A stretch of DNA of 42,072 nucleotides from a virus. Each line of letters starts with the position of its first letter. The stretch's first letter is position 1. The DNA lies in the IMG/VR virus record IMGVR_UViG_3300044647_002005, positions 1-42,072 of that record; one strand, written 5' to 3'. Of the stretch, positions 4,553 to 32,620 are shown piece after piece. The notes below the pieces were generated by a model. That model had not been told where the DNA came from and did not search any database. It saw only the letters and a program-made list of their open reading frames with translations. Both the position numbers and the translations under genes were made by a program.

Positions 4553-7500
4553 ATGTATAACGAAATTCAATTCAAAGCAAACTCTGGTCAGGTAAACATT
4601 GACCAGGCCGAGGGCATTGTTGAATGCTTCGTTGCTGGAATTGGGAACAAGGACTCCGTAGGCGACATTGTTCTGTCAGGTGCATTTTCAAAGAGCCTCA
4701 TGCGTCGCAAACCGCGTGTCGTTTGGGGCCACAACTGGAACGACCCAATCGGGAAAGTTCTGGAAATTTACGAAGTCCCACCTAGCGACCCGCGCCTTCC
4801 AGCAAAAATGAAGATGGCTGGGATTGGTGGATTGTTTGCAAAAGTTCAATTCAATCTCAACTCGGACAAGGGGCGAGAGGCTTTTGCCAATGTTGCGTTC
4901 TTTGGGGTTGAGCAGGAGTGGTCAATCGGATACAAGACGCTTGATGCAATTTTTGACAACACCCGTCAAGCAAACTTATTGCGAGAAGTTGAACTTTACG
5001 AAGTTTCCCCAGTTCTTCATGGGGCCAATCAACTTACTGGAACAATCTCCGTTAAGAGTGATGAAGAGAAGATGCACATGATGGGTGGCATGGGGATGCC
5101 TAACACAATTGTTATTGCACGACCGCAGGAAGAAGGCCCACAAGAGCCTCGCGACCCATTCGCAATGGGTATCGCTCAGCCGCTATCTGACGACCGTCGC
5201 GCAGGACTACAGCAAGAACTGGTCAGCCGAACTGGCGGACCGATTCATGTTCTTAAAGCAACAGAGTCATCTGTCGTTTTCATGAAGCCAGGTCGCGGAC
5301 TATTTAGGCTCAGTTACTACTTTGACGGCGAGCAATTCATGTTTGGCAAACCAGAGCCAATGGGTCAGAAGCCTGTTGCCGTGGTCCCAAGTGTTGGGCC
5401 GAAGCCAAATCTGTCTGGCCCGACATCAATTCCAGGAGTTAGTGGAAAGCCAAATATCCCATCTCCAGCAATGCAGTATGCGTCTCCGCCTCCAACAGGA
5501 GATGCAAGTTTGGTATTCGGAGAAGTAAGGCCAAAAGGCACTGAAAAATCGCTTGAAGACGAAATTGACATGCTGCTTGAAAAGATTGACAACGACGAAA
5601 AAATGTCAATCAAGTCTGATGCAATTGAAAAACTCAACTCAGTAGTACGAACTCTTCAAGAAATTATTGGAGTTGAGACAACTGAAAAATCTGAACTCCT
5701 GATTGAATGCGCCCCAGAACACGCTTTTGAGACAAAGCAACTCCTTGACCCAGTTTTTGAATATCATCAAGTTGAAACGCTTGTTACGGAAAACGGAATC
5801 TTAATTACATCGGACATTGACCTTGACGCATATCAGGCAATTGAGACTGCAACAAAGTCTTTGTTTGGGCGTATCGGGCGCAGAATAGGGCCTGGTGGTC
5901 CAAAAAAAGGTAGGCGCGCAACGCGCGCTCTCACCCAGATAGACGGAGTCCTAGACCCGAAAAAGCGTCGCGATGTTGATGGCGACGGCATGATTTTTGA
6001 TGGAACTTGGCGTGAAATGCCAGCCCCAGCAAAGCCATCATTCGCAACTGGACTTCAATCCAGAAAACCAAATACCGTTCCAGCCGCTGAAACGAAGTTA
6101 AATGTTCGCCTAACTCGCACGCAAGCATCAAAAATGCTTGATGGAATTAAAAAACTTTCTGGAAGCGAATCAGAAGGACCATTGAAGAACCTTCTTGACG
6201 AGATTGAGCGTCGCAAATACATTGGCGACCCAGATATTTCACCAAGCATGCTTGACTCAGCACTTGAAGAAATAGGAAAGCGAAAAGCAAACGGAGAGTC
6301 CGTTGATAAGTTCCTTGACGACGCATTAAATGAAATGAAAACCACTGGAGCGTTTGGTCAGAACAATGCGCGTAGTCGCGCTGGCAGGCCAACTGGTGCT
6401 GCTGCTCCGAAGAAAGAGGGGCAACAGAATTTTGCTGGTTACTCTTTTGAAAAGGTAAAGCCAGAGGGCTGGGACTTAATGTCTCTTGAAGATAAAGAAA
6501 ATTGGCTTGCCACATCATCATCTACGGCAAAATTGGCAGCGCGAGATAGGGACAGAATTCTTGCGCAGGTTTACGAGGAAATGGATAGGCGTGACCGCAG
6601 GGCTCAGGCGCGTCAACGGGCTGCTGGTCGCGCCGCGTCGGCACCTTCACCAAAGCCAGAACCAAAGCCAGAACCAAAGCCATCAGCAAAACCAGAGCCG
6701 AAGCCATCGGCACAAGACGATGACGAACTCACCATAGACCAGGCTCTATTGCGTAAAAATTACGCTTCCCTGACCGATGACGAAAAAGAAGAAGTTGATG
6801 CCTACGAGGCTGGGGTGATTGGCAAATTGACCGAACGCCTTCGCGCCACCAATGCCAAACTTAACGAGACTGGAAAGAATGATGTCGCCGAACTGGTGGA
6901 CGGAACTCTCTCCGAGATTGACAATGCCCTTGGTGATGGAGCAACCGAAGAAGCCATAAATGACGCGCAAGACGCCATTGCAAAACTCCTCAAAGAACTG
7001 AACACTTCGTATGGTCCAAAGCCAAAGAAGCCAAAGGCAGAGGAGGAGGGTCAAGAAGTAAAGCCAGACAAGATTTCTAGCGCTGCTGGAAAGTTTAGGA
7101 GTTATTTCACGACCGTTAACGAGGCCCTAGACAAGATGCTGGCGCGCCGTGCATCGTCAGCCGACAGAGGGGACGAGGGAGAACTGGACCTTTCCGAGCG
7201 GGCGGTATCTGCTCGCGTTCGTGGTTTTGATGAAACAGACTTGCCAAGCAAGTTTGAAAACTCACTCAAGTTTGCTCGCTCCTATCAGGATGCCCGTTCA
7301 CGCCGTAAGAGTTCTGGCGCTGGCATGGTTAGTGCAAATAGGACCCCAAGCGGGCTTCGTTCCGACAGGGGCAAGGTTGAACCACGCACAGAAATCATCG
7401 CCGAAGCCACATGGTGGAAGAAAATTGAAGATTCGCTTCCAAAAGAAATACGAGAATCAAAAGACAAGGCAACAACAGATGCCCTCACTAGATTGTCCAC

Positions 7501-7747
7501 GCTTCTTAAGCGTCAAGAGTCTGGAAAAACTGGTTCCCGCAGAACCAATGTTGGAACCCTGAATGTGACTCAAAGCGAAGCGGACTCAATCCTTGACGCC
7601 GTAATGACTGTTCTTGACCGACAGATAGAGAAGGGCGGTTCACGAGGAGAGATTTTTGCTGAACTCCTGGAGAAGATTGCACAATCGTCAATGTCTACAT
7701 TTATAGAAAAAGCAACCCCATCGGCAGAAAAACCTAAAAGAAACTAG
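4553..7747 (+). CDS. prohead serine protease with ~890-residue modular extension
   Basis: The first ~170 of 1,064 residues form an HK97-family (U35/S78-type) prohead protease, which trims capsid and scaffold proteins during head maturation. The catalytic His is in VVWGHNW (H60) and the Ser in EWSIGY (S124), followed by YEVSPVLHGAN. The family normally has 170-250 residues. The remainder has a Pro/Gly-rich linker and a helical segment. Next come the shared EF-hand-like module (5867-6028, loop D474-T485) and a linker motif TGLQSRKPNTVP. A long charged helical region follows, with a PKPEPKPEPKP repeat (6651-6716), a second linker SGLRSDRGK, and a final helical domain. The extension may act as scaffold or as cargo cleaved off by the protease itself. 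That is inference. Fusion of a protease to modules also found in the downstream giants is the key oddity. Confidence 0.9.
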   Translation: MYNEIQFKANSGQVNIDQAEGIVECFVAGIGNKDSVGDIVLSGAFSKSLMRRKPRVVWGHNWNDPIGKVLEIYEVPPSDPRLPAKMKMAGIGGLFAKVQFNLNSDKGREAFANVAFFGVEQEWSIGYKTLDAIFDNTRQANLLREVELYEVSPVLHGANQLTGTISVKSDEEKMHMMGGMGMPNTIVIARPQEEGPQEPRDPFAMGIAQPLSDDRRAGLQQELVSRTGGPIHVLKATESSVVFMKPGRGLFRLSYYFDGEQFMFGKPEPMGQKPVAVVPSVGPKPNLSGPTSIPGVSGKPNIPSPAMQYASPPPTGDASLVFGEVRPKGTEKSLEDEIDMLLEKIDNDEKMSIKSDAIEKLNSVVRTLQEIIGVETTEKSELLIECAPEHAFETKQLLDPVFEYHQVETLVTENGILITSDIDLDAYQAIETATKSLFGRIGRRIGPGGPKKGRRATRALTQIDGVLDPKKRRDVDGDGMIFDGTWREMPAPAKPSFATGLQSRKPNTVPAAETKLNVRLTRTQASKMLDGIKKLSGSESEGPLKNLLDEIERRKYIGDPDISPSMLDSALEEIGKRKANGESVDKFLDDALNEMKTTGAFGQNNARSRAGRPTGAAAPKKEGQQNFAGYSFEKVKPEGWDLMSLEDKENWLATSSSTAKLAARDRDRILAQVYEEMDRRDRRAQARQRAAGRAASAPSPKPEPKPEPKPSAKPEPKPSAQDDDELTIDQALLRKNYASLTDDEKEEVDAYEAGVIGKLTERLRATNAKLNETGKNDVAELVDGTLSEIDNALGDGATEEAINDAQDAIAKLLKELNTSYGPKPKKPKAEEEGQEVKPDKISSAAGKFRSYFTTVNEALDKMLARRASSADRGDEGELDLSERAVSARVRGFDETDLPSKFENSLKFARSYQDARSRRKSSGAGMVSANRTPSGLRSDRGKVEPRTEIIAEATWWKKIEDSLPKEIRESKDKATTDALTRLSTLLKRQESGKTGSRRTNVGTLNVTQSEADSILDAVMTVLDRQIEKGGSRGEIFAELLEKIAQSSMSTFIEKATPSAEKPKRN
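5867..6028 (+). other. shared EF-hand-like module, copy A
   Basis: The module has a Gly/Arg-rich basic lead (GRIGRRIGPGG...RR), then IDGVLDPKKRRD, then the loop DVDGDGMIFDGT and WREMPAP. The loop matches D-x-D-x-D-G-x-I at EF-hand calcium-ligand positions 1, 3 and 5, with T rather than E at position 12. Three further copies occur in downstream proteins. Confidence 0.85.
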
Positions 7748-9202: not shown

Positions 9203-9216
9203 CCCGTCATGACGGG
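9203..9216 (+). promoter_or_regulatory. perfect palindrome centred on a start codon
   Basis: CCCGTCATGACGGG is a perfect 14-nt palindrome and the ATG of the next gene (9209-9211) is at its centre. In mRNA it can form a 4-bp stem with TCATGA in the loop, exposing or masking the start. GGAG (9199-9202) sits just upstream. Confidence 0.6.
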
Positions 9217-15228: not shown

Positions 15229-18200
15229 AATCCGTACTTGTTGGAAAACTTGACAACAAAAAGTTGTACTACATCATTGATTCTGACGGCACACGAAACG
15301 ATGGCGTACTGGTTGACGACTTGGGCAAGAAAGAGTTAATCAACTTCTGGCAGTTTGTACGCAGTGAGCCGCGAGTAAAGCGGATGATGAATAGCGATTT
15401 CCACAAATTCCTTTGGCAAGATTCCTTGAACCAAAGAGAAAAAGCGCTTTGGAATAATGTTTTTATCGCAAAAGCATTCCCTCCAGATGACTCGCTTCTC
15501 ATGACTGTTCCAGTAAAAGACGACATTCTTGGACGCAAGTCGGTTCTTCATGGCCTGATGAATAGGGCTCTTGACTTTGATATTGCGAGGCGCTCCAACA
15601 CTCTTGAAGAAAAAGCAATACAAGGAAGAATTGGTTCCGCTATTGGTCGCGCGTTTAAACCACGACGGAACACTGGTAAAAGGTCTGTTCGTCGCTCAAT
15701 GGCTGAAATTGAGGGAGTCCTAGACCCCAAGAAACGCCGTGACAAAGATGGTGACGGAATGATTTTTGATGGAACCTGGCGCGAAATGCCAGACCCGTCA
15801 AGAACGATGGACGCCACAGCGGTGCCTTCTGGTCTGTTAATGAATGTTTCCACACCAGAAATAGACGGTCCACTAATCAGCGTTGACGCAAAAAGAAAAC
15901 GGATTTCAACACAGATTAGAGCAATATCCTCTTCAACTGGAGTGGATGGCAGTCTAAGGGCAGTATCGGATTTCGTCCGTGAAAAATTTGCATCAAAATT
16001 CGGGTTTAAAAAAATCAAAGAAAAACTTCAAGAGCACGAAGTTGAAGCATTTGAGCACTGGAATGATGGAGTAATTCCAAAAACAGTTGGCGATGCGCAT
16101 GAAATTCTTTCAAGGATTCACCCAACATACATAATGGATAGACCAGCAAAACATAGCGATTTACAAAAGCATGTTTCATTTGACTTCTTGATGGATAAAG
16201 ACGCATCGGAAGACTTGGAGTCTTGGGAAATATCCCTCTTGGCATCTCATCTGCTATTCATGAAAGAATCAGAAAATCTTGAAGACTCACCAATCGGACA
16301 TAATTTCTACTATGTAGACCTTGACAGGGCTGAAAAAATTTCTAAAAAAGTAGCCGAAGCAACAACGAAGTACATATTAAACGGTTCTTTTTCACCAAGC
16401 CCAACGCCTAGGGGTTTTGATGATTTCAAAATTGAAATACAGGGTCGGAGATATCGGGTGTCCAGCGCAACGGACATGGCGGCGCTTAGAGCATGGGTCA
16501 CTGGGCAGTATTTGCTAAGGCCAGACCAGGCTGACCAGGAAGAGTTCAAAAAACAGATAACTGAATTTGTCTTGCATTCAGCACAGCAGCATGTTGACTA
16601 CGAAAGCGGAGTTAGCGGATACTGGGGGTTCAAGCCTGGCGCAAAAATAAATGCAGATGGAAGCGTGAGCAAACTTTATGCTCCAGGACACATGATTGGG
16701 TACCAGCGAGCAGAAGGAAAATGGTTGAGCCAAATCGGCTTACCGCGAGAAGAGGCTGCAGACGATAGCGTTTCAATACTTGACCTACTTAGTCGCACGC
16801 TACAAACTGGCAGCAGAATCTCCATTACTGCATGGCTTGCAGATGAAGATGAAATCACCAATAAGAAACTTTCTGATAAAAAAGAAAAATTATCAAGCGC
16901 TGTAAAAAAATTAGAAAAAGAATTAAGAGACCTGGAAGGGGCGCTTAGGGCATCAGACGGCGATGGGGTTTTATCACCAGAGCAAAATATCAACATACAA
17001 AAAAACATTGTTGAAACTCGTCAAGAAATTAAAGATTTAATTGGACAAATTGAGGAAATTGAAAAAAATATTGATGTTGACACTCCAGAGCGCAGAAACA
17101 AGAAGGCGCGTAAACTTTCCGAATTGCTTGCTCTGAATACAGCGCATCATGAACATGGTCATGGGCATGAAAACATAGCAATTTACAACGAAATTAAAAA
17201 GGCTGTTCTCGCACGACGCGATGCGCGAATAAGCGAATTAAAGGCAAAAAGCGGGAAATTATCACTGAATGAACAACGAGAACTAAACACTCTTTCCTCA
17301 GCAGTGGACCATCGCGAATTATGGGACTGGTACCTATTTGACCAAATTCAAAACGGCCCAGAAACGACTTTCAAGGAGACTCTTAGTTCAGCGCTAGAGG
17401 AGATAGCAGCATATGGTCTTCTGGAGAGATATGAAACATTGTTCAACACCGACCCCGAGAAAGGTTTTGTTGACGGTTTTTACGGTCAAGTCCTCAACAC
17501 CCTGCAGAACAGCAGGCAAAGGGCTGTAAGTGAAATTGCGAATAATGGTCAATCAATACTCTTACTACAGAGACTGGGTGATTCTCGCTCACTGCAAATT
17601 GCTGAAAGTATCAAGGAAAAGACCAAAGAACTCAAAGACTACCTAACAAGCGTTGATTTTTTCCTTGACCAATTTAAAAAAGCAACTGAAAGTCTAAAGT
17701 CTCAAACACTCTTTGACCCAAAAACAAGGTCAACCATAAAAGTCTCAGATGAGCAAAAGAAAAAGTTTAACAAATTGATTACAGATTACGCCAGAATACT
17801 CAGCGATATGCCAGACAGCGTATTTGGTGCTCCGCGTGGAAGTGGCGTTGGCAAAATACTTTCCGAACAGATAAGCCAGGCAAAAATTACGGGCAACGAA
17901 TTAACAGTCGGTCAATGGGCAGAAATTTTGAGCGCTGGAAGAATACTGTCCAAGACAAATGTTGGATTTGGCGCAAGATTCATAACAATGAAGCAAGATG
18001 TAGACACAGCACCAGGCGTAAAGCGCACCAAGTTTGGTGCAGGTGCATCTAAATACGGCTCGGCAGTTGACGGATTCGCTGATAACAGTAACCAATTTGC
18101 AGTAATCAAAGACATGATGCGCAACGGACTGCCAGAGTTGTTTGGAGAAGGAACCGAAGAAAATGCAGCATTTATGAGAGCGCTCCAGTCAACGGGAATG

Positions 18201-20150: not shown

Positions 20151-22196
20151 ATGAATGAATTAATTACGGAAATCAAGACACTTGAATTTGCAAGTGCCTG
20201 CTGCCCAAACTCCATGATGACCAAGGTGCGCGTTGTATTCGCCGCAGAGAAAACCGCACCGAATAATGTGATGCGCTCGCTTCCAGCAAATCGCGGGGAA
20301 CTGATTACATTCAAAGCGCTGTTGAAGCGTAACGGTCGTTCTCGTGAGTACGAAGTAAAACGAGTTGGCTCAATTGGTTCAAGCAACCCACTTCTACAGG
20401 GCATTCAGGCTGCTGGCTCAATGGCTCTTCCTGGTGACTCAAGCATTCTAAGAAGCCCGATACGAAGCACTGTTTTTGGCGCACTCACCCCAGGTATGCC
20501 AAGCATCCCAGGAATCCCAGGACGAGGACTTGGTGGACGAGACAGGACATATCACTGCCCAGAGGGCTACCAGTACGGCGGAAGATTTACCGATAAGAAG
20601 TTCTCTAACTGTGGAGCAAAACTTTTTGACATTCCTGGACCGCTCGGTCTTGCTATTGCCGCAATACGAGCAGTACGAAACGCAATCAAACCAGGTCCAC
20701 AAACACAGAGCGAAGCACTGGGGGCTGGACAGTACCCAGAAAGCATCGTTGATTCTCGCGCACCACAGATTCCAAGGGTTTCACTTTCAAACCCGCAAAA
20801 ACTAAAACTTGAGGTAGACAAATTAGTCACTCCTCTAGGAAAGCAATCTTCACCAGTAGCGCGAATGGTGCGACGAGATGGGTTCGTTCTTGAGCCAGTC
20901 GTACCCGCTTCGGTTCTGAGAACAGTTCCAGACAATAGGAACATGGAGGGCGCAACATACATCTCCAACCATGCGACACCAGACACGATTGGCAAAGATG
21001 AACTAGGACTTCTTTCAAACACTGGGATTCAAAGTTTGAAATATGTTCTTCCAGGCGGCTCGGTGCTCACTCTTGAAAAGAAACGACCGCTAACCGTAGG
21101 CGAGCGAAGGAAACTTGGTCGCACGGTAAATGCTGCGATTGAATCGTCAAACGACAAAGACCCAGCATCACGACTGAAGATGGTTGCGACTGAAACTGGT
21201 GATGGAATCGGATATAGCGAAAAATTTGTCGGTATTTCAAACCCTAACGAGATTGGCCCAGACGGCAAAGAGCGTTGGGCATCTACTGCATTCAAGAAGC
21301 AGTCTGGCAAGCCGACGGAACAGCGCGAAGCGCAACCAGTACAGGCTGCTGCCGCATCGCAGACAGACATTGGAACAGTTGATGGAGCGATTAACCACAT
21401 CAAGAATGGTGGAAGTCTTGCCGATATCTCACCAGATATCCTTCAGGAAGTCCTCAAGAAAATGCGTGAAATCAAAACGCAAAAAATTAACGACCGTCAG
21501 TCGCTTGTGTCAATGCCAAACGGTGACAAACTGCTGCTGAACTCGTCGGTTAATAATTTTGACCACATTGGACAGCGTTTTGCCTCAGCAGTTCAAGAGC
21601 ACCTTGGAATCAAGGCTCCAGACATCTTCTTCGTTGGCGTTGGCGATAAGCGAAATTACCTTGCACAGGACGCGGAAACAGCAATTCGCGGAGCGAAAAT
21701 TGACAGAAACTCCAAGTTTGCTGATTCCAACCCGATGGATGTGACCAGGTTGATGTTTGCGGACATTCTCACTGACACGAGGAACCGAAATATAGGAACA
21801 ATTGCGATGCTTTCTGCGAAAGACAACAAGTACATCCTTGCCACATCAAACCCTGGCTCTGGACTTACTGGTCTTGATGAAATATCAATTACAAAACGCA
21901 CTGAGATGGGTATTCAGGAATTGCTCAACCCAGGTGAGTCTTCTATCTATATAAATTATTTCCAAACCCTTAAAGAACTACAGCGGTCTCAGTACCAGCA
22001 ATTTATTGCTACACTTATTCAGAGGGCAAGAGCCTTTAATTTCAGCAACTTTAAGTCAAACCTTTACAAAGACGGAAAATTGTCTCAAGGCGAAAAAATT
22101 CACTTGAACATCCTTGAGAAATTGTTTAATCAACGCCTTGGTCGTTTGACAAATGCACGAGATTCAATCTACGAAATTGTGAGCGCTAAGAAATGA
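20151..22196 (+). CDS. multidomain protein with CPxG/FTD/SNC motif and degenerate HipA/PI-kinase-like C-terminus
   Basis: This encodes 681 residues. An N-terminal ~75-residue WYL/SH3-like basic region (YEVKRVG) is followed by a Pro-rich stretch with RGLGGR. The Cys motif YHCPEGYQYGGRFTDKKFSNC (C136 to ~C155) is shared with the 9209 gene, then comes a hydrophobic segment LAIAAIRAVRNAIK. In the C-terminal domain MFADILTDTRNRNIG (M535-G549) resembles the catalytic D-x4-N loop of HipA/PI3K-like kinases (D542, N547). The usual D-x-G of the metal-binding loop seems replaced by TSNPGSG, so it may be inactive. The stop overlaps the next start (ATGA), pairing it with a gene whose kinase-like domain looks intact. 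Kinase kinship is moderate-confidence inference. Confidence 0.65.
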   Translation: MNELITEIKTLEFASACCPNSMMTKVRVVFAAEKTAPNNVMRSLPANRGELITFKALLKRNGRSREYEVKRVGSIGSSNPLLQGIQAAGSMALPGDSSILRSPIRSTVFGALTPGMPSIPGIPGRGLGGRDRTYHCPEGYQYGGRFTDKKFSNCGAKLFDIPGPLGLAIAAIRAVRNAIKPGPQTQSEALGAGQYPESIVDSRAPQIPRVSLSNPQKLKLEVDKLVTPLGKQSSPVARMVRRDGFVLEPVVPASVLRTVPDNRNMEGATYISNHATPDTIGKDELGLLSNTGIQSLKYVLPGGSVLTLEKKRPLTVGERRKLGRTVNAAIESSNDKDPASRLKMVATETGDGIGYSEKFVGISNPNEIGPDGKERWASTAFKKQSGKPTEQREAQPVQAAAASQTDIGTVDGAINHIKNGGSLADISPDILQEVLKKMREIKTQKINDRQSLVSMPNGDKLLLNSSVNNFDHIGQRFASAVQEHLGIKAPDIFFVGVGDKRNYLAQDAETAIRGAKIDRNSKFADSNPMDVTRLMFADILTDTRNRNIGTIAMLSAKDNKYILATSNPGSGLTGLDEISITKRTEMGIQELLNPGESSIYINYFQTLKELQRSQYQQFIATLIQRARAFNFSNFKSNLYKDGKLSQGEKIHLNILEKLFNQRLGRLTNARDSIYEIVSAKK

Positions 22197-25100
22197 AGCA
22201 ATACGCAATCCTAAAAGACGCAATCCGAAATGAGAACTTTGGAATAGTTGTCAAATCAGATGAAGCAACAAAGTTTTTTGGATTCACTGAACACGGCACC
22301 GAGTGGTCAAAGTGGGCGAATAGCGTAAAAAGCGCTGAATCAGTGCTACCAGACGGCATCACTGTTGGTGAATTCAAGAACCTCACCGAGGACATTTTGG
22401 CCAAGTTTGACATTGACTCAACAGAAGTAGAAGTCAAGTCTGAAGTACTCACCGAGTCACGCAGGTTTAACAAGTTTGTTGAATCAAAATCACTCAATAG
22501 CGCTTCAAAGTTGGTGAGCATTTCCGACACCCGATTGAGTGATTGCGGCGTACATAATTTCACAGCCGTTAACTTTAAGGCACGCTTGTTCCGCGGCGAA
22601 CAGGTAAGAGGAGAATTGGCGCTTAAGTCAAGGTTCGGACAACTTGCGTTCAATCATGAAATCAGCCGCTTTAACCCACGCCCTAATTCTGAAACAAAGA
22701 GTATTGAATTTGCAAATATCCGTAAAAAAATTAACTCTGGTGCAGAGCGCCGATTCGGCCAGCAGATTGTAAAGTCAATCAACAACTCAATATCTGAAGT
22801 AAAAGTTGAAGATGACTGGATGAAGCGTCGCGGCAAGGTTGGTGTCAACACTGCTGAAATCATTGAGTTCCACGAAAAAGGTCTAGGCCGTGCAATCGGT
22901 CGCGCAATTTTCGGTCGTCGCGGTCGCGGTCGTGGTATGGGTGGTAATGCGAGCAGATTTATTTCTGGTGTTCTAGACCCGAGCAAGCGACGAGATGTTG
23001 ACGGCGACGGAATGATTTTTGATGGTACATGGCGCGAAATGCCAGACCCAACAAGATTCAAACCAGGTGCGAGAGTTCCAAACAGAACCCCAGGAATGGG
23101 TGGCGACATTTTTAATACCAGAAAGCCATGGCGACCAGGTCAAGACACTGGCGCACCAGCGATTGTTGACGATATCCCAGGCATGGATGACAATTCATTA
23201 ATTGATGAATTTAATTATCTTGAAAACAGAATTTACCCAATCAATGGTGATGTGACCACTCCGCGTCAGGACAAAGAACGCGCTACGGCAATCAGGCGAG
23301 AATTGCGCAAACGAGGCATCCGTCAGAGAGACATTGAGGCAAGAGACCCTATCGCAAAGATGGGGGCACGACTCTTTGGCCAAGAGCAGTCAGGACTTCG
23401 CTCGCAGCGCGGTGACAAGAAACCAAATGTAACTCCAAAAGACAAGCCTGCAGAAAAGCCAAAAGACCCTTCAAAGATGACGAAGGAAGAAATTGACGAC
23501 CTTCTTTATGACTTAAGGACAGACTGGAAACAGCGCAAGCGCTCAATGGAAGCAGACCTCATGGAGGACATGTTCTATTGGGAAGATGAAGAAATTGCTA
23601 AGCGTTTCATGGACGAGTACGGAATGACAAAGCGCGAGGCAATGAAGGAAGTTGACAACTGGCGCGACCTTTACGACGAATACACGCAGGCGCAGATGGA
23701 CTACGACGAGCGCCGTGCCGAACTTCTTGATGCAAAAGAAAAAGCACCATTTGAAGACGATGTTGAAGAGGGCGGTAAAGAGCCACAACAGATGCGCGGG
23801 CTCGGTTCTGCAAAGGATAAAGTAAGCGACAACATTATTGACGAACTCCTTGATAGGGCTGATGGGGCAAACGACGGAATCACTCCATTGCTAGAAAAAC
23901 TCAAGAAGAACAAGTTGTCAGATGATGAAAAATCCAACCTTCTTGAAATGCTCAATGACGAATTCAACAACGGCGACCTTGCTGGCGACGAAAGACTTAA
24001 CAAGTTAATTAAGAAAATCAAAAAGGGACCACAAGACCAGAGCGGTCCAGACCTTGAAGGCCTTCGCAGGCAGTTCGGAAGTCGTGGTTTAGGCTCATCA
24101 AATGAAAACAGTGAAGTAATTGACGAACTACTAGAGAGCGCATCTGGCGCAAACGATTCAATAACGCCAAAGTTGCAAAAACTAAAAATCTGGCCTCGCC
24201 TTGACGACAACGAAAAAGCAGACATTATTGAAGAACTCACAAACGAGTACAACAATGGCGAATTAGCCGATGACCCGCGCCTGAAGAAACTTATTGATGA
24301 CCTTAAGGGCGGTGGAAGCACCAGTCGTGGGCTTTCTTCACGGCGGGTTAGGACGGTTGATGACGCCAAGAAAATAATGCGCGATAATTTCAATAGCGCA
24401 CAGGCTGGCGGTGCAGACCTTGACTCAGGAATTCGCGCTGTTGCAAGAGGTCTTGGACTTGATTCTGATACTGAAGACCAACTATCGCAACTCATCTACG
24501 ATGGTGGTCCAGGCGATTCTTTAATTAGTGAAATTGACGCAACAGATAAAGAAAAATCAATCTTGAGAGAAGCGGTTCTTGAGTTTGCATATTTGGATGG
24601 TGGTGCAAAACGCGGTCCTGTTTCAACTTCCGAGGATGCACGACAAATAATGCGTGACAGTTTCAGTAGCGCGCAGGCTGGCGGTGCAGATTTGGATTCT
24701 GGTATTCGTGCTGTTGCACGGGGGCTCGGCTTACCCAAAGACGCTGAAGACAAACTTTCTCAGTTGATTTATGATGGTGGTCCAGGGGACTCCTTAATTA
24801 GCGAAATCGCTAGAGACAAAGAAGAACGAAACATCCTGAAGGACGCTGTTCTTGAGTTTGCTTATTTAGATGCTGGAAAAGAAAGAGGCCCAATCTCCGA
24901 GAATGAAGCCAAAAAGATAATCCGAGATAGTTTTGAAAGCGCTCGGTCTGGTGGCGCTGATTTGGATTCTGGTATTCGCTCTGTTGCGCGAGGACTTGGA
25001 TTGCCCAAGGATGCAGAGGATAAACTTTCGCAACTAATTTACGACGGTGGCCCAGGGGATTCTCTAATTGGTGAAATTGCTAGAGACGACGAAGAACGAG

Positions 25101-28100
25101 ACATCCTAAAGGAAGCGGTTCTTGAGTTTGCAAGATTGGATGGTGGTAACGACGATATTGAGTCCGCCAATGATGCACGGAGAATAATTCGCGAAAGTTT
25201 TAATAGTTCCATGGCTGGAGGTGCTGACCGAGATACTGGCATTCGTCGCATCGCCAGAAGTCTTGGGATTCGTCCTGCCGATGAAGAAAAACTTGCAGAA
25301 ATAGTTAATGAAACCAGTGGTCCAGGTGATTCAACCATTATGGAAATCACGAATGACCCAGACAAGCGAAACATATTAAAAGAAGCAATTCTTGAGCAAG
25401 CAAGACTTGATGCTGGTGAAAGAAGGGGGCTTGCATCGCGCCGTCAGCGTAACGCTGTTCCACAGAACATGAGTTCGCGTCGTGCAACAGCAACGACCGA
25501 GCGAGCAGCAGCACCGCGAGGACTTGCATCTGACCGACCAAAGCCAAAGGTGAAGAAGAAAACCAGCAACGCTGTGCCTGGTGTTGACGCAGTTGACGAA
25601 AAAGACGGACGGTTCTGGAGCACGCTGACGCCAGAAGAGCGACAAAAGGCTCAAGCGGCGCTAGAAAAACACAAGTTGGAAATGGAAAAGAAACTCAAGG
25701 GTCGTTACGCAACATGGTGGCGTGGACAGGTTCGCGGAGCGCAGAAACAAGGTGTTCGCGGTGGAAGATTTGCGCCACGAGACGAAGACGATTCATTGAA
25801 CTTCGGCGATATCACAGAAATGCAGCGCCAACTTGATATTGCCATTGCAAATGGAACCGTATCCAGTGTTGCTGTTGATAAAGAAGGAAAGCCAATAATA
25901 AACAAAGATGGCACTCCAAAGCAATCAATGGCAGATGTATATCAAAAAGAAATTGACACTTTGAGCCTTCTTTTGAATATGGAAAAGGCAAAAGATTATT
26001 CAAAACTTGAACATCTGCATCCAATTCAGAAAAAAATTGTTCTTGAAGCAATCGGTAAAAAGGGTGGCGACAAGGAATTCAAGGGTGGCACAAAATCTTC
26101 ATACTTCGGACGCGGCGGTGGTGTAACACGCACAGCAGCAGATGTGACAGCAGCGGCAGAAGCAGCAAAAGACAAGAAGAAAGGTGATGCCGGAACAATC
26201 AAGTTCCGTCAGCGCATTCTTCGTGTTAATCCAGAGCGTGCGAGAAGGCGTGAACTACGAAAGAACCGAATCTCAAACAAGCCTGGACGACGAGGAGAAA
26301 TCCTTGACCCAACACTTGCGGCAAAGCAAAAGAAGTTGCGCGCGCAAGCAAAGATTCGCGGAATTAAGAGCAAGTTCAAGGGCAAGCGAGATGCTGCACA
26401 GGTGACAAAGCAGATTGAAGGACAGAGGGCAGAACTGCATCCATTGACATTTAATCCAGATGGAAGCATCAAGATGACCCCAGCATTCCCAGACATGCTT
26501 GCATTCTTGTCTGGCTCGCTACACGCGAACAAGAAAAAGGGTGAAAAAGCAGAGCAAAAGGTATTTGACAGACTGCTTGCCGACCTTTGGGAAAATACTG
26601 GTTTTGCACAAAAGCCGATTCTTATTAGGCCAGAAGAAATTGACGAACTCATCAAGGCTGGATGGCAACCAATCGTTCGCGGAACTGGTGGAGAAAAAGT
26701 AAACAGTGAAGGTTATGTTGAACAGTTCCTAACATCTGAAGGACGATTTATCCCTGGTCAAGGCGCACGCGCTTACGGTGTTGGAGAGTACTTCACATTC
26801 CCAGGAGAGTCGCGATGGGACAGTGGTTACACTGGAGGAGAAAACGCACGACACACGATTCTTGCGCTTGTGCCTCCTACGGCGAATATCGTTTCGCAAT
26901 CTGAACTGAGCGGTGAAGTTCGTAAACTCAAGGACCACCTAAATAAAATCAGCGAACGAGTTGGTGAAGTGGGTGGAAGAGATGCTGCAGCAGCCATGTC
27001 AACACCAGAGTTGGTCAAGGAGTTGCGCGAGGCCGTTGGCGACATGTCTGACGATACACGCGCATCGCAAATAATCAAGGGCATGATTGACATGCTTGAA
27101 GAAAAAGACAACGCTGGAGAGGACACCGCTCAATTGCGAGGCCAGGTTGTTGACGGCCTTGACTACATGAAGCGAATTGCTGACCACAACGACATCGGAC
27201 ATGTTGCTCCAATGCTTGGAGTTGACGGACATGAGCCAGATGGTGATTCTGGCGTATTCCTGCTTCACAACCGTGGTGCTGTTGCCGCTGTTCAGCGTCC
27301 ACTCACCCGTAAAGAAGGAAAAGAACTTGGACAGTTCAAGAAGTCGCTATGGAAGTCGTGGGGACGAGACAAAGTGACAAGCCCTATGCCAGAGTCTGCT
27401 CCCGCTGCATCAAAAGCACCAAAGGCACCAAAGGCACCGAAGGCAAGCAAGCCAGCAACGACAAACGCATACAGCAAGGTTGATGTGAGCGGATGGAAAA
27501 AAGTTGGTGGACAGAGGGGCTCAAACCCAGGCGGAACATTTGCTGACTCTGCTGGAGTTGAGCATTACATAAAGACGCCAAGCACTCCGCTTCATGCAGA
27601 AAACGAAAGCCTTGCGTCAACGCTCTACAACTTGGTTGGAGTAAACGCCGCTGATGTTCAGGTTGGCGATGATAACGGACAGGTTAAGACTGTTTCAAAA
27701 ATTGTTCAAGGCGCACGGTCTGCAACATCTAGCGACAAGAAGCAAATGCAAAGCGCGTTTGTTGCCGACGCATGGCTTGGGAACTGGGATGCGGTCTTGA
27801 ATGACAACACACTTATTGACTCATCTGGAAAACCAGTAAAGATTGATGTCGGTGGCTCAATGTTGTTCAGGGCGCGTGGCGGAGCGAAGGGCGCGCAATT
27901 TGGCGATACGGTAGGAGAAATTGACACCCTTCGTCAGCGAAACTCGGTCTATGCAGATATTACTGACGCACAGATTAGGGAGCAAGTAAAAGCCCTTAAA
28001 TCAGTCAGCGCAGACATGATTAAAGCCCAAGTAAAGGCGATTCTAACCGATTCTGCGCAAGCCACAAAACTTGCTGATACCCTTATTGCTCGTCGCCAAG

Positions 28101-28123
28101 ACCTTATTAACAGGTATGGCTGA
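22193..28123 (+). CDS. giant polyprotein: EF module, tandem repeats, ADP-ribosyltransferase-like and HipA/PI-kinase-like domains
   Basis: This encodes 1,976 residues. In order: an N-terminal ~220-residue domain; the shared module (residues 230-286, loop D268-T279); a charged helical region; two ~90-residue repeats each opening with RGLGS (535, 631); and four tandem ~90-residue repeats (722-1081). Then RGLASRR and RGLASDR linkers, a basic region with VRGGRFAPR, and an ADP-ribosyltransferase-like domain (PIVRGTGG with R1496, then AYGVGEYFTF about 1528). The kinase fold comes last: HYIKTP (K1794), LGNWDAVLNDN (N1864, D1866, N1872), and KIDVGGSMLFRARG (D1885). The last two motifs match the catalytic and metal loops of HipA/PI3K-like kinases found at the ends of phage proteins. 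Both terminal domains would modify host targets (NAD- and ATP-dependent). Packaging in the virion is inferred. Confidence 0.8.
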   Translation: MKQYAILKDAIRNENFGIVVKSDEATKFFGFTEHGTEWSKWANSVKSAESVLPDGITVGEFKNLTEDILAKFDIDSTEVEVKSEVLTESRRFNKFVESKSLNSASKLVSISDTRLSDCGVHNFTAVNFKARLFRGEQVRGELALKSRFGQLAFNHEISRFNPRPNSETKSIEFANIRKKINSGAERRFGQQIVKSINNSISEVKVEDDWMKRRGKVGVNTAEIIEFHEKGLGRAIGRAIFGRRGRGRGMGGNASRFISGVLDPSKRRDVDGDGMIFDGTWREMPDPTRFKPGARVPNRTPGMGGDIFNTRKPWRPGQDTGAPAIVDDIPGMDDNSLIDEFNYLENRIYPINGDVTTPRQDKERATAIRRELRKRGIRQRDIEARDPIAKMGARLFGQEQSGLRSQRGDKKPNVTPKDKPAEKPKDPSKMTKEEIDDLLYDLRTDWKQRKRSMEADLMEDMFYWEDEEIAKRFMDEYGMTKREAMKEVDNWRDLYDEYTQAQMDYDERRAELLDAKEKAPFEDDVEEGGKEPQQMRGLGSAKDKVSDNIIDELLDRADGANDGITPLLEKLKKNKLSDDEKSNLLEMLNDEFNNGDLAGDERLNKLIKKIKKGPQDQSGPDLEGLRRQFGSRGLGSSNENSEVIDELLESASGANDSITPKLQKLKIWPRLDDNEKADIIEELTNEYNNGELADDPRLKKLIDDLKGGGSTSRGLSSRRVRTVDDAKKIMRDNFNSAQAGGADLDSGIRAVARGLGLDSDTEDQLSQLIYDGGPGDSLISEIDATDKEKSILREAVLEFAYLDGGAKRGPVSTSEDARQIMRDSFSSAQAGGADLDSGIRAVARGLGLPKDAEDKLSQLIYDGGPGDSLISEIARDKEERNILKDAVLEFAYLDAGKERGPISENEAKKIIRDSFESARSGGADLDSGIRSVARGLGLPKDAEDKLSQLIYDGGPGDSLIGEIARDDEERDILKEAVLEFARLDGGNDDIESANDARRIIRESFNSSMAGGADRDTGIRRIARSLGIRPADEEKLAEIVNETSGPGDSTIMEITNDPDKRNILKEAILEQARLDAGERRGLASRRQRNAVPQNMSSRRATATTERAAAPRGLASDRPKPKVKKKTSNAVPGVDAVDEKDGRFWSTLTPEERQKAQAALEKHKLEMEKKLKGRYATWWRGQVRGAQKQGVRGGRFAPRDEDDSLNFGDITEMQRQLDIAIANGTVSSVAVDKEGKPIINKDGTPKQSMADVYQKEIDTLSLLLNMEKAKDYSKLEHLHPIQKKIVLEAIGKKGGDKEFKGGTKSSYFGRGGGVTRTAADVTAAAEAAKDKKKGDAGTIKFRQRILRVNPERARRRELRKNRISNKPGRRGEILDPTLAAKQKKLRAQAKIRGIKSKFKGKRDAAQVTKQIEGQRAELHPLTFNPDGSIKMTPAFPDMLAFLSGSLHANKKKGEKAEQKVFDRLLADLWENTGFAQKPILIRPEEIDELIKAGWQPIVRGTGGEKVNSEGYVEQFLTSEGRFIPGQGARAYGVGEYFTFPGESRWDSGYTGGENARHTILALVPPTANIVSQSELSGEVRKLKDHLNKISERVGEVGGRDAAAAMSTPELVKELREAVGDMSDDTRASQIIKGMIDMLEEKDNAGEDTAQLRGQVVDGLDYMKRIADHNDIGHVAPMLGVDGHEPDGDSGVFLLHNRGAVAAVQRPLTRKEGKELGQFKKSLWKSWGRDKVTSPMPESAPAASKAPKAPKAPKASKPATTNAYSKVDVSGWKKVGGQRGSNPGGTFADSAGVEHYIKTPSTPLHAENESLASTLYNLVGVNAADVQVGDDNGQVKTVSKIVQGARSATSSDKKQMQSAFVADAWLGNWDAVLNDNTLIDSSGKPVKIDVGGSMLFRARGGAKGAQFGDTVGEIDTLRQRNSVYADITDAQIREQVKALKSVSADMIKAQVKAILTDSAQATKLADTLIARRQDLINRYG
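22880..23050 (+). other. shared EF-hand-like module, copy C
   Basis: GLGRAIGRAIFGRRGRGRG leads to ISGVLDPSKRRD, the loop DVDGDGMIFDGT and WREMPDP. The loop is identical to copy A. Confidence 0.85.
23795..24325 (+). repeat. two ~90-residue protein repeats, each opening with RGLGS
   Basis: Residues 535-630 and 631-711 of the 22193 product align. Each has RGLGS, then IIDELLDRADGAND (or VIDELLESASGAND), (G/S)ITP-x-L-x-KLK, L-x-D-(D/N)EK, and a (D/T)NE-(F/Y)-NNG-(D/E)-LA-(G/D)-D tail. Confidence 0.8.
24356..25438 (+). repeat. four tandem ~90-residue protein repeats
   Basis: The units begin near residues 722, 813, 903 and 992 of the 22193 product (period 89-91 residues). Shared features are DA(K/R)-x-I-(M/I)-R, GGAD-x-D-(S/T)GIR-x-(V/I)AR-(G/S)LG, a GPGDS motif, and I-L-(R/K)-(E/D)-A-(V/I)-LE-x-A-x-LD. 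The first three are close copies and the fourth is diverged (RPADEEKLAEIVNETS). Confidence 0.9.
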
Positions 28124-28545: not shown

Positions 28546-31143
28546 ATGGCTGATGTAGAAAAATCAGAGACAAACAGCAAAGCGTTTGCCCTTCGTATTG
28601 CGCAGAATATTGGCTGCACTGGCGCGCATAAAAAAGATGGCAAGTGGATGCCATGTTCAACCATGGAAGAATTGCAAAAAATCTCCACAAGTGCTGAACC
28701 CAAAAGGAAAACTGCACTAGTAGAAGTTGAAGAAAGATTTAAAAAGCGAAGCCGAAAAGGCAAGAAGCGCCAATGGGAAAATCTTGGACAAAGAGGCGTC
28801 GCTGGAATTGACGCGATGGAAAGCGGCGGGATTGTTTCTGCCCCAATAGTTTCTGTTAAAGCAGGAATACCAGGTCTTGCACCACGAGATAGCGACGATG
28901 ATGTTTACAACGAAATTGAATCAGCAAGAAAGCGTTCAGTTCGCTTAGGTTGCATCGGGGTAAGACGACTTGTTTCTCAAAGCGGACGAACCGTATGGAT
29001 GCCATGCACCACTAATACTGATTACGCACGACTTGCTGGAACCACCGCTCTAGGGAGAAGGCATCAGCGTCAAGCAGCAAACTTGGCAATTAGAAAAATT
29101 GTTAGCGAGCAACTTAAGAACCCGCGTCGCAAAAAATCATTATTTGATGAAATGTACGAAGAAAAAGGTCTCGGTCGCGCAATCGGTCGCGCAGTCGGTT
29201 CTGGTTCAAGACGAGGCAAAATCCGTCGCGCCATTGAAGTCATTGACGGAATACTTGACCCACGACTAAGGCGAGATGTTGACGGAGACGGTTTCATCTT
29301 TGACGGAACATCAAGAGAAATGCCAGACCCAACTCGTGCTATTCCAGATACTGGCGAAGGACTCACATCAATGCGTCGTTCAGAGAACAGACTTTCCGAT
29401 TACCGAGATAGAGGCGTAGAGGCGTACGACCCAACAAAGCCAAGGAAGCCAAGCAAGCCGACAAGAGTTAACCCATCGGACATTTCTGTTGGTGGAAACT
29501 TGAAAGCAAGAGAAATTTTGCGTTCCGACAGATTGCGCAATAGGAGCCGACAAGACCAGGCAACCATGCTTGGTGTTTCTGTTGATGTTATTGAGCAGAT
29601 GGAAAAGCCAGACGCAACAATTGACCCATACGCAGCAGACAGACTTGCTGATGCACTAAACCTTCACCCAACTGCAATTTGGGGCGATGATTGGCTGAAG
29701 CCAGATGTTACTGAAGAAGCCGCTCCGAAAAGAACACGCAGAATGCGCGAACTTGATGATAGGGATAGGCAAATCCTCAAGATGCGTGATGAAGGTAGAA
29801 CGCTTGACGAAATAGGAAAAGAATTAGGGATTACAAAAACTCGCGTAAACCAACTTCTCAAACGAGCAATTGAATCAAACTCGCGTGAATTTGATAAGGG
29901 TTCAAGGAAGCCAAATACAATTCCAACCAGAGTTGCGAAATCATCTGGAATGGTTAAGCGTGACGCTACTGGAAAAGTAATCATTGAAAAAGATGTGCGC
30001 AAGGAAGTATTTGACAAAACAGTTGAAAGTCTCAAAAAAATTGGAATGTCAGACGATGAGATTGACATTTTGCTGGGTGGAAAACGAAATGCCAATGTGA
30101 CACCAGAGTCGGCAAACGCTCCATCGGTGTTAATGCTTGACAATCCAATGACTGGTCTAAGAAGCGCTCGCAAAAAGAGCATCCCACCATCTGAATGGCC
30201 AGAGAGCGAAAAGAAGCATTATCTTAACTGGGCAAATGCACGACCAAGTTTTGTCGTTCCTTACAGCCTTGTTGTCAAGTACAACAAAGATAAGTTTTTG
30301 TCCGATAAGGACTGGAGACTCCTAAAGCAGTTTTACGACCGCTACGGTGCAAACTCTCGTTCAAGGAATGTGACCCCTATGGGTCTCCGTTCAACATCAA
30401 CATACACTGGAACGCCAAATGTTGGTGCGAAGAGAATGGGGCAAATTATTCTTGGTCGCGTGCAATCAAAGTTCAAGGGTGACAGGCCAGGACAGCGAAA
30501 GCATCACGCAATTATTGGCGCTCCAGGAATGGGCAAGACAAGCCTTTACGACTTTCTTTCGCGAACAGCGATAATCCCTGGTGACTCAGAAGCAGCCCAT
30601 ATTGACCCAGACTTCGTGAAACAGGGAATGGAAGGGTATAACGGAGGCGCTGGTGCTGGGAACATCCATAGAGAATCAGCAATGGCGGCAATGCATATCT
30701 ACAGGGACGCCGTGAAAGAACAGATGGATGTCGTAACCGAGGGAACTGGTAAACGCCTTATGGACTACCTCAATCTGGCTAAGGGGTACGAGATGGTTGG
30801 GCATGCGGCATGGATTCCTCCGTCTGGTGCAAAAGAAAGAATTCGCAAGCGAAAACTAGAAGATGGGCGAGAAATAGCCGAATATATCGTTGACCATATT
30901 GCGGATGTTTCGTACGACTTGGTCGCTCGTCACCTGCGGAACGGCGAAATGAGCAGTTTCTACCTCTGGGATACCGATGTTCCAAAAGGTGCTGCGCCGA
31001 AATTGATTGCAAAGGTGGAGGGCGGCGTTTTCGTTGTCAACGACGAGAACAAATTCAAATCCTGGTCAACTGGTGGTCGCGGTGGACAAACTGGCGACAA
31101 AAATTTGTCTTACTTCAAGAAAAAGTACGCGAAATCACAATAA
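28546..31143 (+). CDS. multidomain protein: Cys motifs, EF module, two helix-turn-helix segments, zeta-toxin-like P-loop kinase
   Basis: This encodes 865 residues. The N-terminus has two related Cys motifs, IGCTGAHKKDGKWMPCST (C24, C37) and LGCIGVRRLVSQ...WMPCTT (C136, C154). The shared EF module follows (residues 208-262, loop D244-T255). An XRE-type helix-turn-helix lies at about 321-385 (RQDQATMLGVSVDVIEQME), and a sigma-region-4-like one at about 400-443 (RTLDEIGKELGITKTRVNQL). Linkers TGLRSAR and MGLRSTS precede the kinase. The C-terminal domain has Walker A GAPGMGKT (658-665, K664), HIDPDFVK (D687, D689) and EGTGKR (732-737), the pattern of zeta-toxin/chloramphenicol-phosphotransferase-like kinases. 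Zeta toxins phosphorylate UDP-sugars for cell-wall synthesis. The target here is unknown and no epsilon-like antitoxin is visible nearby. Confidence 0.8.
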   Translation: MADVEKSETNSKAFALRIAQNIGCTGAHKKDGKWMPCSTMEELQKISTSAEPKRKTALVEVEERFKKRSRKGKKRQWENLGQRGVAGIDAMESGGIVSAPIVSVKAGIPGLAPRDSDDDVYNEIESARKRSVRLGCIGVRRLVSQSGRTVWMPCTTNTDYARLAGTTALGRRHQRQAANLAIRKIVSEQLKNPRRKKSLFDEMYEEKGLGRAIGRAVGSGSRRGKIRRAIEVIDGILDPRLRRDVDGDGFIFDGTSREMPDPTRAIPDTGEGLTSMRRSENRLSDYRDRGVEAYDPTKPRKPSKPTRVNPSDISVGGNLKAREILRSDRLRNRSRQDQATMLGVSVDVIEQMEKPDATIDPYAADRLADALNLHPTAIWGDDWLKPDVTEEAAPKRTRRMRELDDRDRQILKMRDEGRTLDEIGKELGITKTRVNQLLKRAIESNSREFDKGSRKPNTIPTRVAKSSGMVKRDATGKVIIEKDVRKEVFDKTVESLKKIGMSDDEIDILLGGKRNANVTPESANAPSVLMLDNPMTGLRSARKKSIPPSEWPESEKKHYLNWANARPSFVVPYSLVVKYNKDKFLSDKDWRLLKQFYDRYGANSRSRNVTPMGLRSTSTYTGTPNVGAKRMGQIILGRVQSKFKGDRPGQRKHHAIIGAPGMGKTSLYDFLSRTAIIPGDSEAAHIDPDFVKQGMEGYNGGAGAGNIHRESAMAAMHIYRDAVKEQMDVVTEGTGKRLMDYLNLAKGYEMVGHAAWIPPSGAKERIRKRKLEDGREIAEYIVDHIADVSYDLVARHLRNGEMSSFYLWDTDVPKGAAPKLIAKVEGGVFVVNDENKFKSWSTGGRGGQTGDKNLSYFKKKYAKSQ
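29167..29331 (+). other. shared EF-hand-like module, copy D
   Basis: GLGRAIGRAVGSGSRRGK leads to IDGILDPRLRRD, the loop DVDGDGFIFDGT and SREMPDP. It is the most diverged copy (F for M in the loop, S for W after it). Confidence 0.85.
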
Positions 31144-31288: not shown

Positions 31289-32620
31289 ATGTCAGAAGAC
31301 AAAGCAAGACTTAGCGAACTGCAAAGTGCACTTCGCGCAAAGATGGCAGACAACAAGACCATCGCAGACTCGTTCAAAATTGAAGACGGTAATGTCGTTG
31401 TATCCAGCGCACAGAAGACCGCATTTGATAAGAACATGGTTGACATCAAGGAAATCAAGAGCCTCATCTCGGGCCTTGAGCAAATGAGCGAAGTTGACTC
31501 ATGGGGCTCGCAGGCAACTGGTGAATCAGTTGCAGCAGCAGCAGCAGCAGGTTCTTCATTTTCAAACAGCCTCCGCAGCGAAACAATCGGCGAAGCATTC
31601 TTGAACTCAGCAGAATTCAAGTCGCTCGCAAATGGTCGCAACGGCGCAAACATGCCATCACCTTTCAACTACGGCGGAAGCCTTGCTGGTGTTAGCGGTT
31701 ACGGCGTAAAGGATGCTTACACGGCAATGCCAAGCGGTTTCCCAACACAGTTCGGCACCGTACAGCGTGACCCAATCGTCATTCAACCAAAGCGCACCAA
31801 GCGTGTTCGCGACTTGTTCCCAACTCGCACCACGACTGCTGCAATCATTGAATACTTCCGCATGACTGGTTTCACCAACAACGCGGCAGCAGTTGCAGAG
31901 CGCAACGCAGGCAACACTGCATTCGCAGCGAAGCCACAATCCAGCATGTCGTTTGAGGGTGTACAGACTTCGGTCAAGACCCTTGCACACTGGGAAGCAG
32001 CACACCGCAATGTTCTCGCTGATGAGCCACAACTACGCTCAATCATTGACAACGAGTTGATGTACGGCCTTCGCTTGCAGGAAGATGCACAAATCCTCAA
32101 TGGCGATGGAACTGGCGAAAACCTTCAGGGTGTTCTTCAGACTCCTGGCATCCAGACATACGACTGGTCAGATGGTGCTTACTCATCAACACCTGGTCTG
32201 AGTGACTCAAAGGCCGACGCAATCCGTCGTGCCGCTACCCTTTCGTTCTTGGCTTACTACGAGCCATCGGGTGTTGTAATGCATCCAAACGACTGGGAAG
32301 ACCTTGAGTTGACCAAGGACGGCAATGGCCAGTACCTCATCGCAGTTTCGGTTGCAATGGGTGGCGAGCCAAAGGTATGGCGTTTGCCAGTCGTAGAGAC
32401 TCCAGCAATGACCGAAGGCGAAGCACTTGTTGGTTCGTTCGGTCAGGGCGCACAGTTGTACGACCGTGAGCAGGCTTCAATTCGCATCAGCGAACAGCAT
32501 GCTGACTTCTTCATCCGCAACGCAATTGTGATTCTTGCAGAACAGCGCCTAGCGTTGGCTGTAAAGCGTCCAGAGTCGTTCGTGAAGGTGTCGTTTGACG
32601 CCGCACCAAGCGCACCGTAA
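31289..32620 (+). CDS. major capsid protein, HK97 fold
   Basis: This 443-residue protein builds the icosahedral head. The N-terminal ~85 residues form a charged, helical delta-like region (SELQSALRAKMADNK) that the prohead protease would normally remove. An Ala/Gly-rich stretch and then the HK97-type shell follow. Recognisable pieces are FGTVQRDPIVIQPKRTKRVR and a YFRMTGFTNNAAAVAE segment where the E-loop and spine helix are expected. Later come DNELMYGLRLQEDAQILNGD, GENLQGVLQT and LTKDGNGQYL. Length is typical with the delta domain included. It has a good ribosome site and a strong terminator 17 nt after the stop. It lies about 23.5 kb from the protease gene, whereas these genes normally adjoin. 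Confidence 0.95.
   Translation: MSEDKARLSELQSALRAKMADNKTIADSFKIEDGNVVVSSAQKTAFDKNMVDIKEIKSLISGLEQMSEVDSWGSQATGESVAAAAAAGSSFSNSLRSETIGEAFLNSAEFKSLANGRNGANMPSPFNYGGSLAGVSGYGVKDAYTAMPSGFPTQFGTVQRDPIVIQPKRTKRVRDLFPTRTTTAAIIEYFRMTGFTNNAAAVAERNAGNTAFAAKPQSSMSFEGVQTSVKTLAHWEAAHRNVLADEPQLRSIIDNELMYGLRLQEDAQILNGDGTGENLQGVLQTPGIQTYDWSDGAYSSTPGLSDSKADAIRRAATLSFLAYYEPSGVVMHPNDWEDLELTKDGNGQYLIAVSVAMGGEPKVWRLPVVETPAMTEGEALVGSFGQGAQLYDREQASIRISEQHADFFIRNAIVILAEQRLALAVKRPESFVKVSFDAAPSAP

What the first reader, a model, noticed from the sequence alone, without database searches (positions are those of the whole stretch)
26640..28123. ADP-ribosyltransferase-like and HipA/PI-kinase-like domains fused in tandem at one C-terminus
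PIVRGTGG and AYGVGEYFTF resemble the Arg and aromatic-turn motifs of ADP-ribosyltransferases. LGNWDAVLNDN and KIDVGGSMLFRARG match the catalytic and metal loops of HipA/PI3K-like kinases, with a candidate ATP lysine in HYIKTP. One chain with two different modifying activities, next to targeting modules, is a strong effector signature.
Basis: partly seen in the sequence, partly recalled or inferred. Interest (0 to 1): 0.68.

Follow-up and report, generated by a model that had tools for sequence, protein, structure and literature searches.

The report
Phage head protein: ADP-ribosyltransferase plus kinase
A giant protein encoded among the head genes of an uncultured bacterial virus ends in a likely ADP-ribosylating domain followed by a clear HipA/CtkA-like kinase; this kinase is a large, apparently unnamed phage family that has been joined to ADP-ribosyltransferases many times, as if viruses inject the two enzymes together to rewire host cells.

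Summary
The window is a 42-kb IMG/VR record of a tailed phage whose nearest isolates infect actinobacteria. ORF 22193-28123 (1976 aa) lies in a block of giant ORFs between the prohead protease and the major capsid protein. Residues 1762-1976 are a kinase: AlphaFold gives pLDDT 90, and the best PDB match is H. pylori CtkA (TM 0.65), with HipA lower down. The Lys, Glu, Asp, Asn and second Asp are nearly invariant over 180 relatives. Residues 1436-1705 look like an ADP-ribosyltransferase (ART) with an Arg-Tyr-Asp triad; motifs and weak PARP and ART-PolyVal matches support this, but no PDB fold match is significant. The kinase has at least 581 viral and 69 bacterial relatives and no family model of its own. 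Of 169 kinase ORFs, 76 also carry an ART, of two clades and on either side, needing at least 16 label changes on the kinase tree. I read it as a new variant of the 'polyvalent' injected phage effectors: packaged, ejected with the DNA, each domain modifying host targets. Activity, substrates and packaging of this protein are inferred. The upstream gene carries a probable pseudokinase.

The parts
22193..28123 (+). ORF of 1976 aa carrying both domains
   Evidence: intact orthologues of 1948-1983 aa in L001, L003, L004
22868..23128 (+). shared head-cassette tag (residues 226-312, RRDVDGDGMIFDGTWREMPDPTR)
   Evidence: blastp within the window, E 3e-14 to 2e-17 with S78, g15225, g28546
24344..25432 (+). 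four repeats of about 83 aa (residues about 718-1080)
   Evidence: read directly from the translation
26498..27307 (+). ART-like domain, residues 1436-1705; R1496 at 26678, Y1533 at 26789, D1678 at 27224
   Evidence: alignment of 20 relatives, AlphaFold pLDDT 81.7, Foldseek
27476..28120 (+). HipA/CtkA-like kinase domain, residues 1762-1976; K1794 at 27572, E1805 at 27605, D1866 at 27788, N1872 at 27806, D1885 at 27845
   Evidence: conservation in 180 domains, AlphaFold pLDDT 89.8, Foldseek CtkA E 4.6e-6
20151..22196 (+). g20151, 681 aa, overlaps the start of the ART-kinase ORF; C-terminus (residues about 440-681) is a probable pseudokinase
   Evidence: conserved neighbour; HHalign to the kinase N-lobe E 4.4e-5
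4553..7747 (+). S78 prohead protease carrying the same tag
   Evidence: Pfam Peptidase_S78 E 1.8e-10; tag
31289..32620 (+). major capsid protein
   Evidence: phrog_10 E 9.7e-69

Best explanation
The 1976-aa protein is a polyvalent effector made with the head proteins, packed into the capsid and ejected into the bacterium with the DNA. Inside, its ART-like domain (R1496, Y1533, D1678) transfers ADP-ribose from NAD to host proteins, and its C-terminal HipA/CtkA-like kinase (K1794, E1805, D1866, N1872, D1885) phosphorylates host proteins, so that host functions such as transcription or translation are turned towards the phage before new genes are expressed. Shown: the kinase family and predicted fold, conservation of both active-site motifs, the head-gene context, the shared tag, the repeated ART-kinase linkage. 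Inferred: ART activity, packaging and ejection of this protein, action on host proteins, and the two activities serving one purpose.
For: Kinase: conservation in 180 domains, model pLDDT 89.8, CtkA, HopBF1, PI4K and HipA matches, HipA motif alignment. ART: motifs, PARP and ART-PolyVal matches. Linkage: 76 of 169 kinase ORFs carry an ART; 39/85 against 7/201 and 25/58 against 0/135 in control ORFs of the same loci; unbiased Pfam scan; at least 16 changes on the tree. Packaging: position between prohead protease and capsid protein, tag shared with the protease, kinase ORFs fused to Mu_F, portal and minor capsid domains, a relative with both domains annotated as particle-associated. Precedents: T4 Alt and T7 kinase, as cited in PMC5512222.
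Against: No significant PDB match for the ART-like domain and no Pfam match in the window protein itself. No activity, substrate or virion data for this phage. Many kinase ORFs lack a detected ART and some ARTs of this family lack the kinase, so neither needs the other. One close relative (L005) has lost about 58 residues of the kinase after the metal loop.
Confidence: 0.6

Rival explanations
1. The kinase is a switch in cis: it phosphorylates the ART domain (or itself), keeping the ART silent in the producing cell and capsid and freeing it after injection. The upstream pseudokinase g20151 would take part in this control.
For: Two domains in tandem in one chain; conserved, overlapping pseudokinase-bearing partner gene at every window-type ART locus whose upstream DNA is held.
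Against: The same kinase pairs with two unrelated-looking ART clades on either side, and with NUDIX, phosphatase or no detected partner, and also stands nearly alone (L013, 272 aa); the g20151 partner also goes with ARTs that lack the kinase (L193, L194, L196).
Confidence: 0.15
2. The two domains act in sequence on one target: the kinase phosphorylates a residue or an ADP-ribose that the ART has placed, or its substrate is a small molecule or lipid rather than a protein.
For: Recurrent linkage to ARTs; NUDIX and SAK-type phosphatase domains in some kinase ORFs and a NUDIX gene two genes downstream in Aeromonas phage ST4 and Morganella phage Mecenats66, all enzymes that can handle ADP-ribose or phosphates; PI4-kinase among the fold matches.
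Against: No direct evidence; the closest fold match, CtkA, and HipA are described as protein kinases (titles; annotation); injected proteins commonly combine unrelated activities (PMC5512222).
Confidence: 0.13
3. The ART-like region is not an ART: a helical head-protein domain with look-alike motifs, so that only the kinase is an enzyme.
For: No significant PDB fold match, no Pfam ART match in the window protein, HHalign to ART profiles not significant.
Against: RGT, GxGxYF, GxD and NRG are kept in order over very divergent members, one of which matches PARP at E 5e-4; the named Foldseek matches nearest the top are ART or PARP; other kinase ORFs carry clear ARTs in a comparable place.
Confidence: 0.12

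Closest known systems
Polyvalent proteins of phages and conjugative elements (Iyer et al. 2017, PMC5512222)
   Same: Very large, multi-domain, coded beside virion genes, unrelated enzyme activities in one chain, ART among the commonest domains
   Different: The polyvalent ARTs described there have H-Y-D; here R-Y-D. The kinase described there lacks the C-terminal subdomain and is from Verrucomicrobia, Chlamydia and Bacteroidetes; the present one is HipA/CtkA-like with its C-terminal helices, and 'HipA' does not occur in the paper
HipA (PF07804) and H. pylori CtkA
   Same: Predicted kinase fold, with Lys, Glu, Asp, Asn and second Asp in matching order
   Different: No HipA_C match for the window domain; a longer catalytic loop (Asp to Asn 6 or 8 residues; HipA's 5); part of a giant phage protein, not a HipBA pair
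ART-kinase proteins of Pseudomonas phages Jeremy and Dolphis, Aeromonas phage ST4, Yersinia phage fHe-Yen8-01
   Same: Same kinase family in one chain with an ART
   Different: Their ART is of the exo-toxin clade (PF03496 E 6e-8 in Jeremy) and lies after the kinase; the records name only the ART, not the kinase
MuF polymorphic toxins of temperate phages (Jamet et al. 2017, PMC5576092)
   Same: Head protein with a C-terminal effector, ARTs among them; 7 of 53 kinase ORFs carry Mu_F
   Different: The window protein has no Mu_F match; no kinase is mentioned in that paper
Phage T4 Alt
   Same: ART coded with head genes and injected (as cited in PMC5512222)
   Different: Alt has an R-S-E site and no kinase domain is described for it in that paper

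Membership tests
Polyvalent phage proteins | several domains of unrelated activity in one polypeptide | tested here: met
   ART-like domain and kinase in one ORF
Polyvalent phage proteins | coded among virion genes | tested here: met
   between S78 protease and capsid protein
Polyvalent phage proteins | packaged in the virion and injected | not testable with these tools
   only a relative's annotation as particle-associated
ART-PolyVal (PF18760, H-Y-D) | histidine in strand 1 | tested here: not met
   arginine (R1496) in all 20 members
ART-PolyVal (PF18760, H-Y-D) | match to the family model | tested here: not met
   no match in the window domain; one member at E 0.15
ART superfamily | strand-1 R or H, a second motif residue, third-strand acidic residue | tested here: met
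   R1496, Y1533, D1678 conserved; the roles are inferred
ART superfamily | ART fold | tested here: inconclusive
   PARP15 E 0.37; ART-PolyVal models E 0.013 and 0.03
Kinase domain of polyvalent proteins (Iyer 2017) | loss of the C-terminal subdomain | tested here: not met
   four helices follow the metal loop in the model
HipA/CtkA-like kinases | kinase fold closest to HipA or CtkA | tested here: met
   CtkA first, TM 0.65; HipA 0.48
HipA/CtkA-like kinases | ATP-binding Lys, catalytic Asp, metal-binding Asn and Asp | tested here: met
   98-100% conserved; order matches HipA
HipA_C (PF07804) | score above the family cut-off | tested here: not met
   no match in the window protein; 3 of 22 members, best E 0.002
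HipBA toxin-antitoxin | HipB-type antitoxin gene beside it | tested here: inconclusive
   the neighbours are g20151 and g28144, neither with a HipB match; g28546 has an HTH_3 match further on
MuF polymorphic toxins | Mu_F domain in the same chain | tested here: not met
   no Mu_F match in the window protein

The most novel reading that the evidence does not exclude
Phages have repeatedly built a coupled ADP-ribosylation and phosphorylation machine, in which an unnamed HipA/CtkA-like virion kinase and an ART act in sequence on one host target or on ADP-ribosylated products, with a pseudokinase-bearing partner as regulator.
Probability: 0.12. Interest if true: 0.85.

Novelty: new variant of a known kind. 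Interest (0 to 1): 0.6.

Why it matters
It points to a common phage head-region kinase family (at least 581 IMG/VR matches; present in isolated phages of Pseudomonas, Aeromonas, Gordonia, Morganella, Yersinia and Enterobacter) without a Pfam, NCBIfam or PHROG model of its own that the scans could find. The domain it is most often seen with here is an ADP-ribosyltransferase. If both are injected, phages deliver two protein-modifying chemistries before any of their genes is expressed, and cultured phages such as Jeremy on Pseudomonas putida make this directly testable.

Tried and rejected
Pfam, PHROGs and NCBIfam on the window protein and the kinase members gave no confident family. Sequence search against PDB chains found nothing significant for either domain; a weak match to the LepB N-terminus (E 0.16) was noted and not used. 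HHalign of the ART profile with one ART-PolyVal sequence and with exo-type ARTs was not significant. ART-PolyVal was not found in 22 kinase-bearing records, but the control also rang nowhere, so this says little. Full-text searches for HipA-like kinases in phage virion or polyvalent proteins found no description; the library holds open-licence papers only. The exo-ART profile was trained on kinase ORFs, so the counts lean towards them; the Pfam counts do not have that bias. GLxSx[RK] as a protease site was considered, but no such motif is seen in the capsid protein, so it stays a guess. No RNA family in the window.

Full report
What the window is. The window is a 42,072-base IMG/VR virus record. 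It encodes a terminase (898-2217, minus strand), portal (2443-4455), S78 prohead protease (4553-7747) and HK97-type major capsid protein (31289-32620), with a ribonucleotide reductase further on. The nearest isolates by capsid protein and terminase are Brevibacterium phage Cantare and Gordonia phages, 42-48% identical, so an actinobacterial host is likely. Between protease and capsid protein lie about 23 kb, mostly very large ORFs. The finding is the C-terminus of one of them, 22193-28123, 1976 aa.

The observation.

The kinase. Direct search with the last 227 aa found 18 IMG/VR loci and 19 phage records. AlphaFold on 13 sequences gave mean pLDDT 89.8, pTM 0.88. Foldseek against PDB gave CtkA of H. 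pylori first (E 4.6e-6, TM 0.65), and further down HopBF1, PI4KIIIbeta and HipA. In 180 domains K1794, E1805, N1864, D1866, N1872, D1885 and the GG after it are 98-100% conserved. HHalign with E. coli HipA pairs the lysine of HYIKTP with that of HipA's HIIKLP, the NE motif with NE, and the WL before the catalytic loop with HipA's WL, at a modest E of 0.049. No Pfam, NCBIfam or PHROG family covers the domain with confidence.

The ART-like domain. Residues 1436-1705 belong to a family found both with and without the kinase. Twenty sequences share RGT or RG (R1496), GxGxY (Y1533), Y1546, GxD (D1678) and NR (1693-1694), each in all or nearly all. One distant member matches PARP at E 5e-4 and one matches ART-PolyVal at E 0.15. 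The AlphaFold model (pLDDT 81.7) has a helical stretch of about 100 aa between the strands. PDB matches are not significant, the best being PARP15. Against viral models six uncharacterised phage proteins match at E < 1e-3, and the first ones with an informative name are ART-PolyVal proteins at E 0.013 and 0.03. I take it as an ART with an R-Y-D triad, about 85% likely; polyvalent ARTs were described as H-Y-D (PMC5512222).

ART and kinase go together. Of 169 non-identical kinase ORFs, 55 carry an exo-toxin-type ART and 21 an R-Y-D ART; none was seen to carry both. Order varies: the R-Y-D ART comes before the kinase in the window's kin and after it in L047, L064, L068 and Gordonia phage GodonK; the exo type mostly comes after it. 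A Pfam scan of 53 non-redundant kinase ORFs, which does not depend on my profiles, gave ADPrib_exo_Tox in 16, Mu_F in 7, NUDIX in 6, ART in 3, portal in 2 and minor capsid protein in 2 (one protein can count in several families). In the same loci an ART occurs in 39 of 85 viral kinase ORFs against 7 of 201 other large ORFs, and in 25 of 58 against 0 of 135 in bacterial genomes (Fisher p 2e-17 and 1e-15; rows are related and the exo profile was trained on kinase ORFs, so these p-values overstate). On a quick kinase tree the ART label needs at least 16 changes; for the 'none' label well-supported branches force 8. Linkage was therefore made or lost many times.

Delivery. A module of 40-75 aa with RRDvDGDGmIFDGTWREMPDPtR occurs in the prohead protease, g15225, the ART-kinase protein and g28546 and in their relatives. 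A variant, DGDGDGvIFDGTpqERPAP, lies on both sides of an ART-PolyVal domain and after the pyrophosphatase domain of a portal-pyrophosphatase fusion in an unrelated phage. GLxSx[RK] occurs 14 times in four head-cassette proteins where about 0.4 are expected from shuffles. A head-targeting tag and processing sites are the obvious readings but are untested. The relative in Yersinia phage fHe-Yen8-01 is annotated as a particle-associated ADP-ribosyltransferase toxin and carries both domains.

Partner gene. g20151 overlaps the start of the ART-kinase ORF. A homologue of 647-692 aa sits at the same place in the ART-first and kinase-less loci whose upstream DNA is held. Its C-terminus aligns with the kinase N-lobe (E 4.4e-5, probability 69) but lacks most of the catalytic residues: a probable pseudokinase.

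Mechanism and verdict. Best reading: a virion-packaged, injected two-enzyme effector of the polyvalent kind, each domain modifying host proteins (0.6). Rivals: the kinase as a switch in cis, sequential chemistry on one target, or an ART look-alike. Shown: homology, predicted kinase fold, conservation, gene context, recurrent linkage. Inferred: packaging, injection, activities, targets. It works like T4 Alt plus a HipA-like kinase in one chain; it is not an ART-PolyVal, Kinase-PolyVal, HipA_C or MuF member by the tests run. It is a new variant of a known kind.

Noticed in passing
5921-6040, 15690-15809, 22943-23062, 29224-29343: A shared tag (GVLDPkkRRDvDGDGmIFDGTWREMPDPtR) occurs in four head-cassette ORFs including the prohead protease, and a variant recurs beside effector domains in an unrelated phage. 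Candidate head-targeting or processing module.
   Followed up: partly
S78 4553-7747, g9197 9197-14932, g22193 22193-28123, g28546 28546-31143: GLxSx[RK] motif 14 times in four proteins, about 0.4 expected from shuffles; kept in close relatives. Possible processing sites between domains.
   Followed up: partly
20151-22196: Conserved, overlapping upstream gene whose C-terminus looks like a pseudokinase of the same family.
   Followed up: partly
9197-14932: 1911-aa ORF whose C-terminus weakly matches DRAT, dinitrogenase reductase ADP-ribosyltransferase (E 2e-5, just under the cut-off): possibly a second ART in the same head cassette.
   Followed up: no
28546-31143: 865-aa ORF with DUF3721, sigma-70 region 4 and other HTH matches and a C-terminal AAA_33-type P-loop, resembling zeta-toxin proteins that lie beside the tag in L270.
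   Followed up: no
L005:2-2149: A close relative lacks about 58 residues of the kinase after the metal loop, in frame: natural loss or assembly error.
   Followed up: no
L119, L158, L121, L125: The same kinase, without a detected ART, in chromosomes of Pseudomonas syringae-group and Endozoicomonas bacteria; whether these are prophage genes was not checked.
   Followed up: no
20151-22196 and 9197-14932: A short Cys-pair module (RCPEGyQyGGRFTDnrfStCGqkLF and a looser copy) recurs in two head-cassette ORFs.
   Followed up: no
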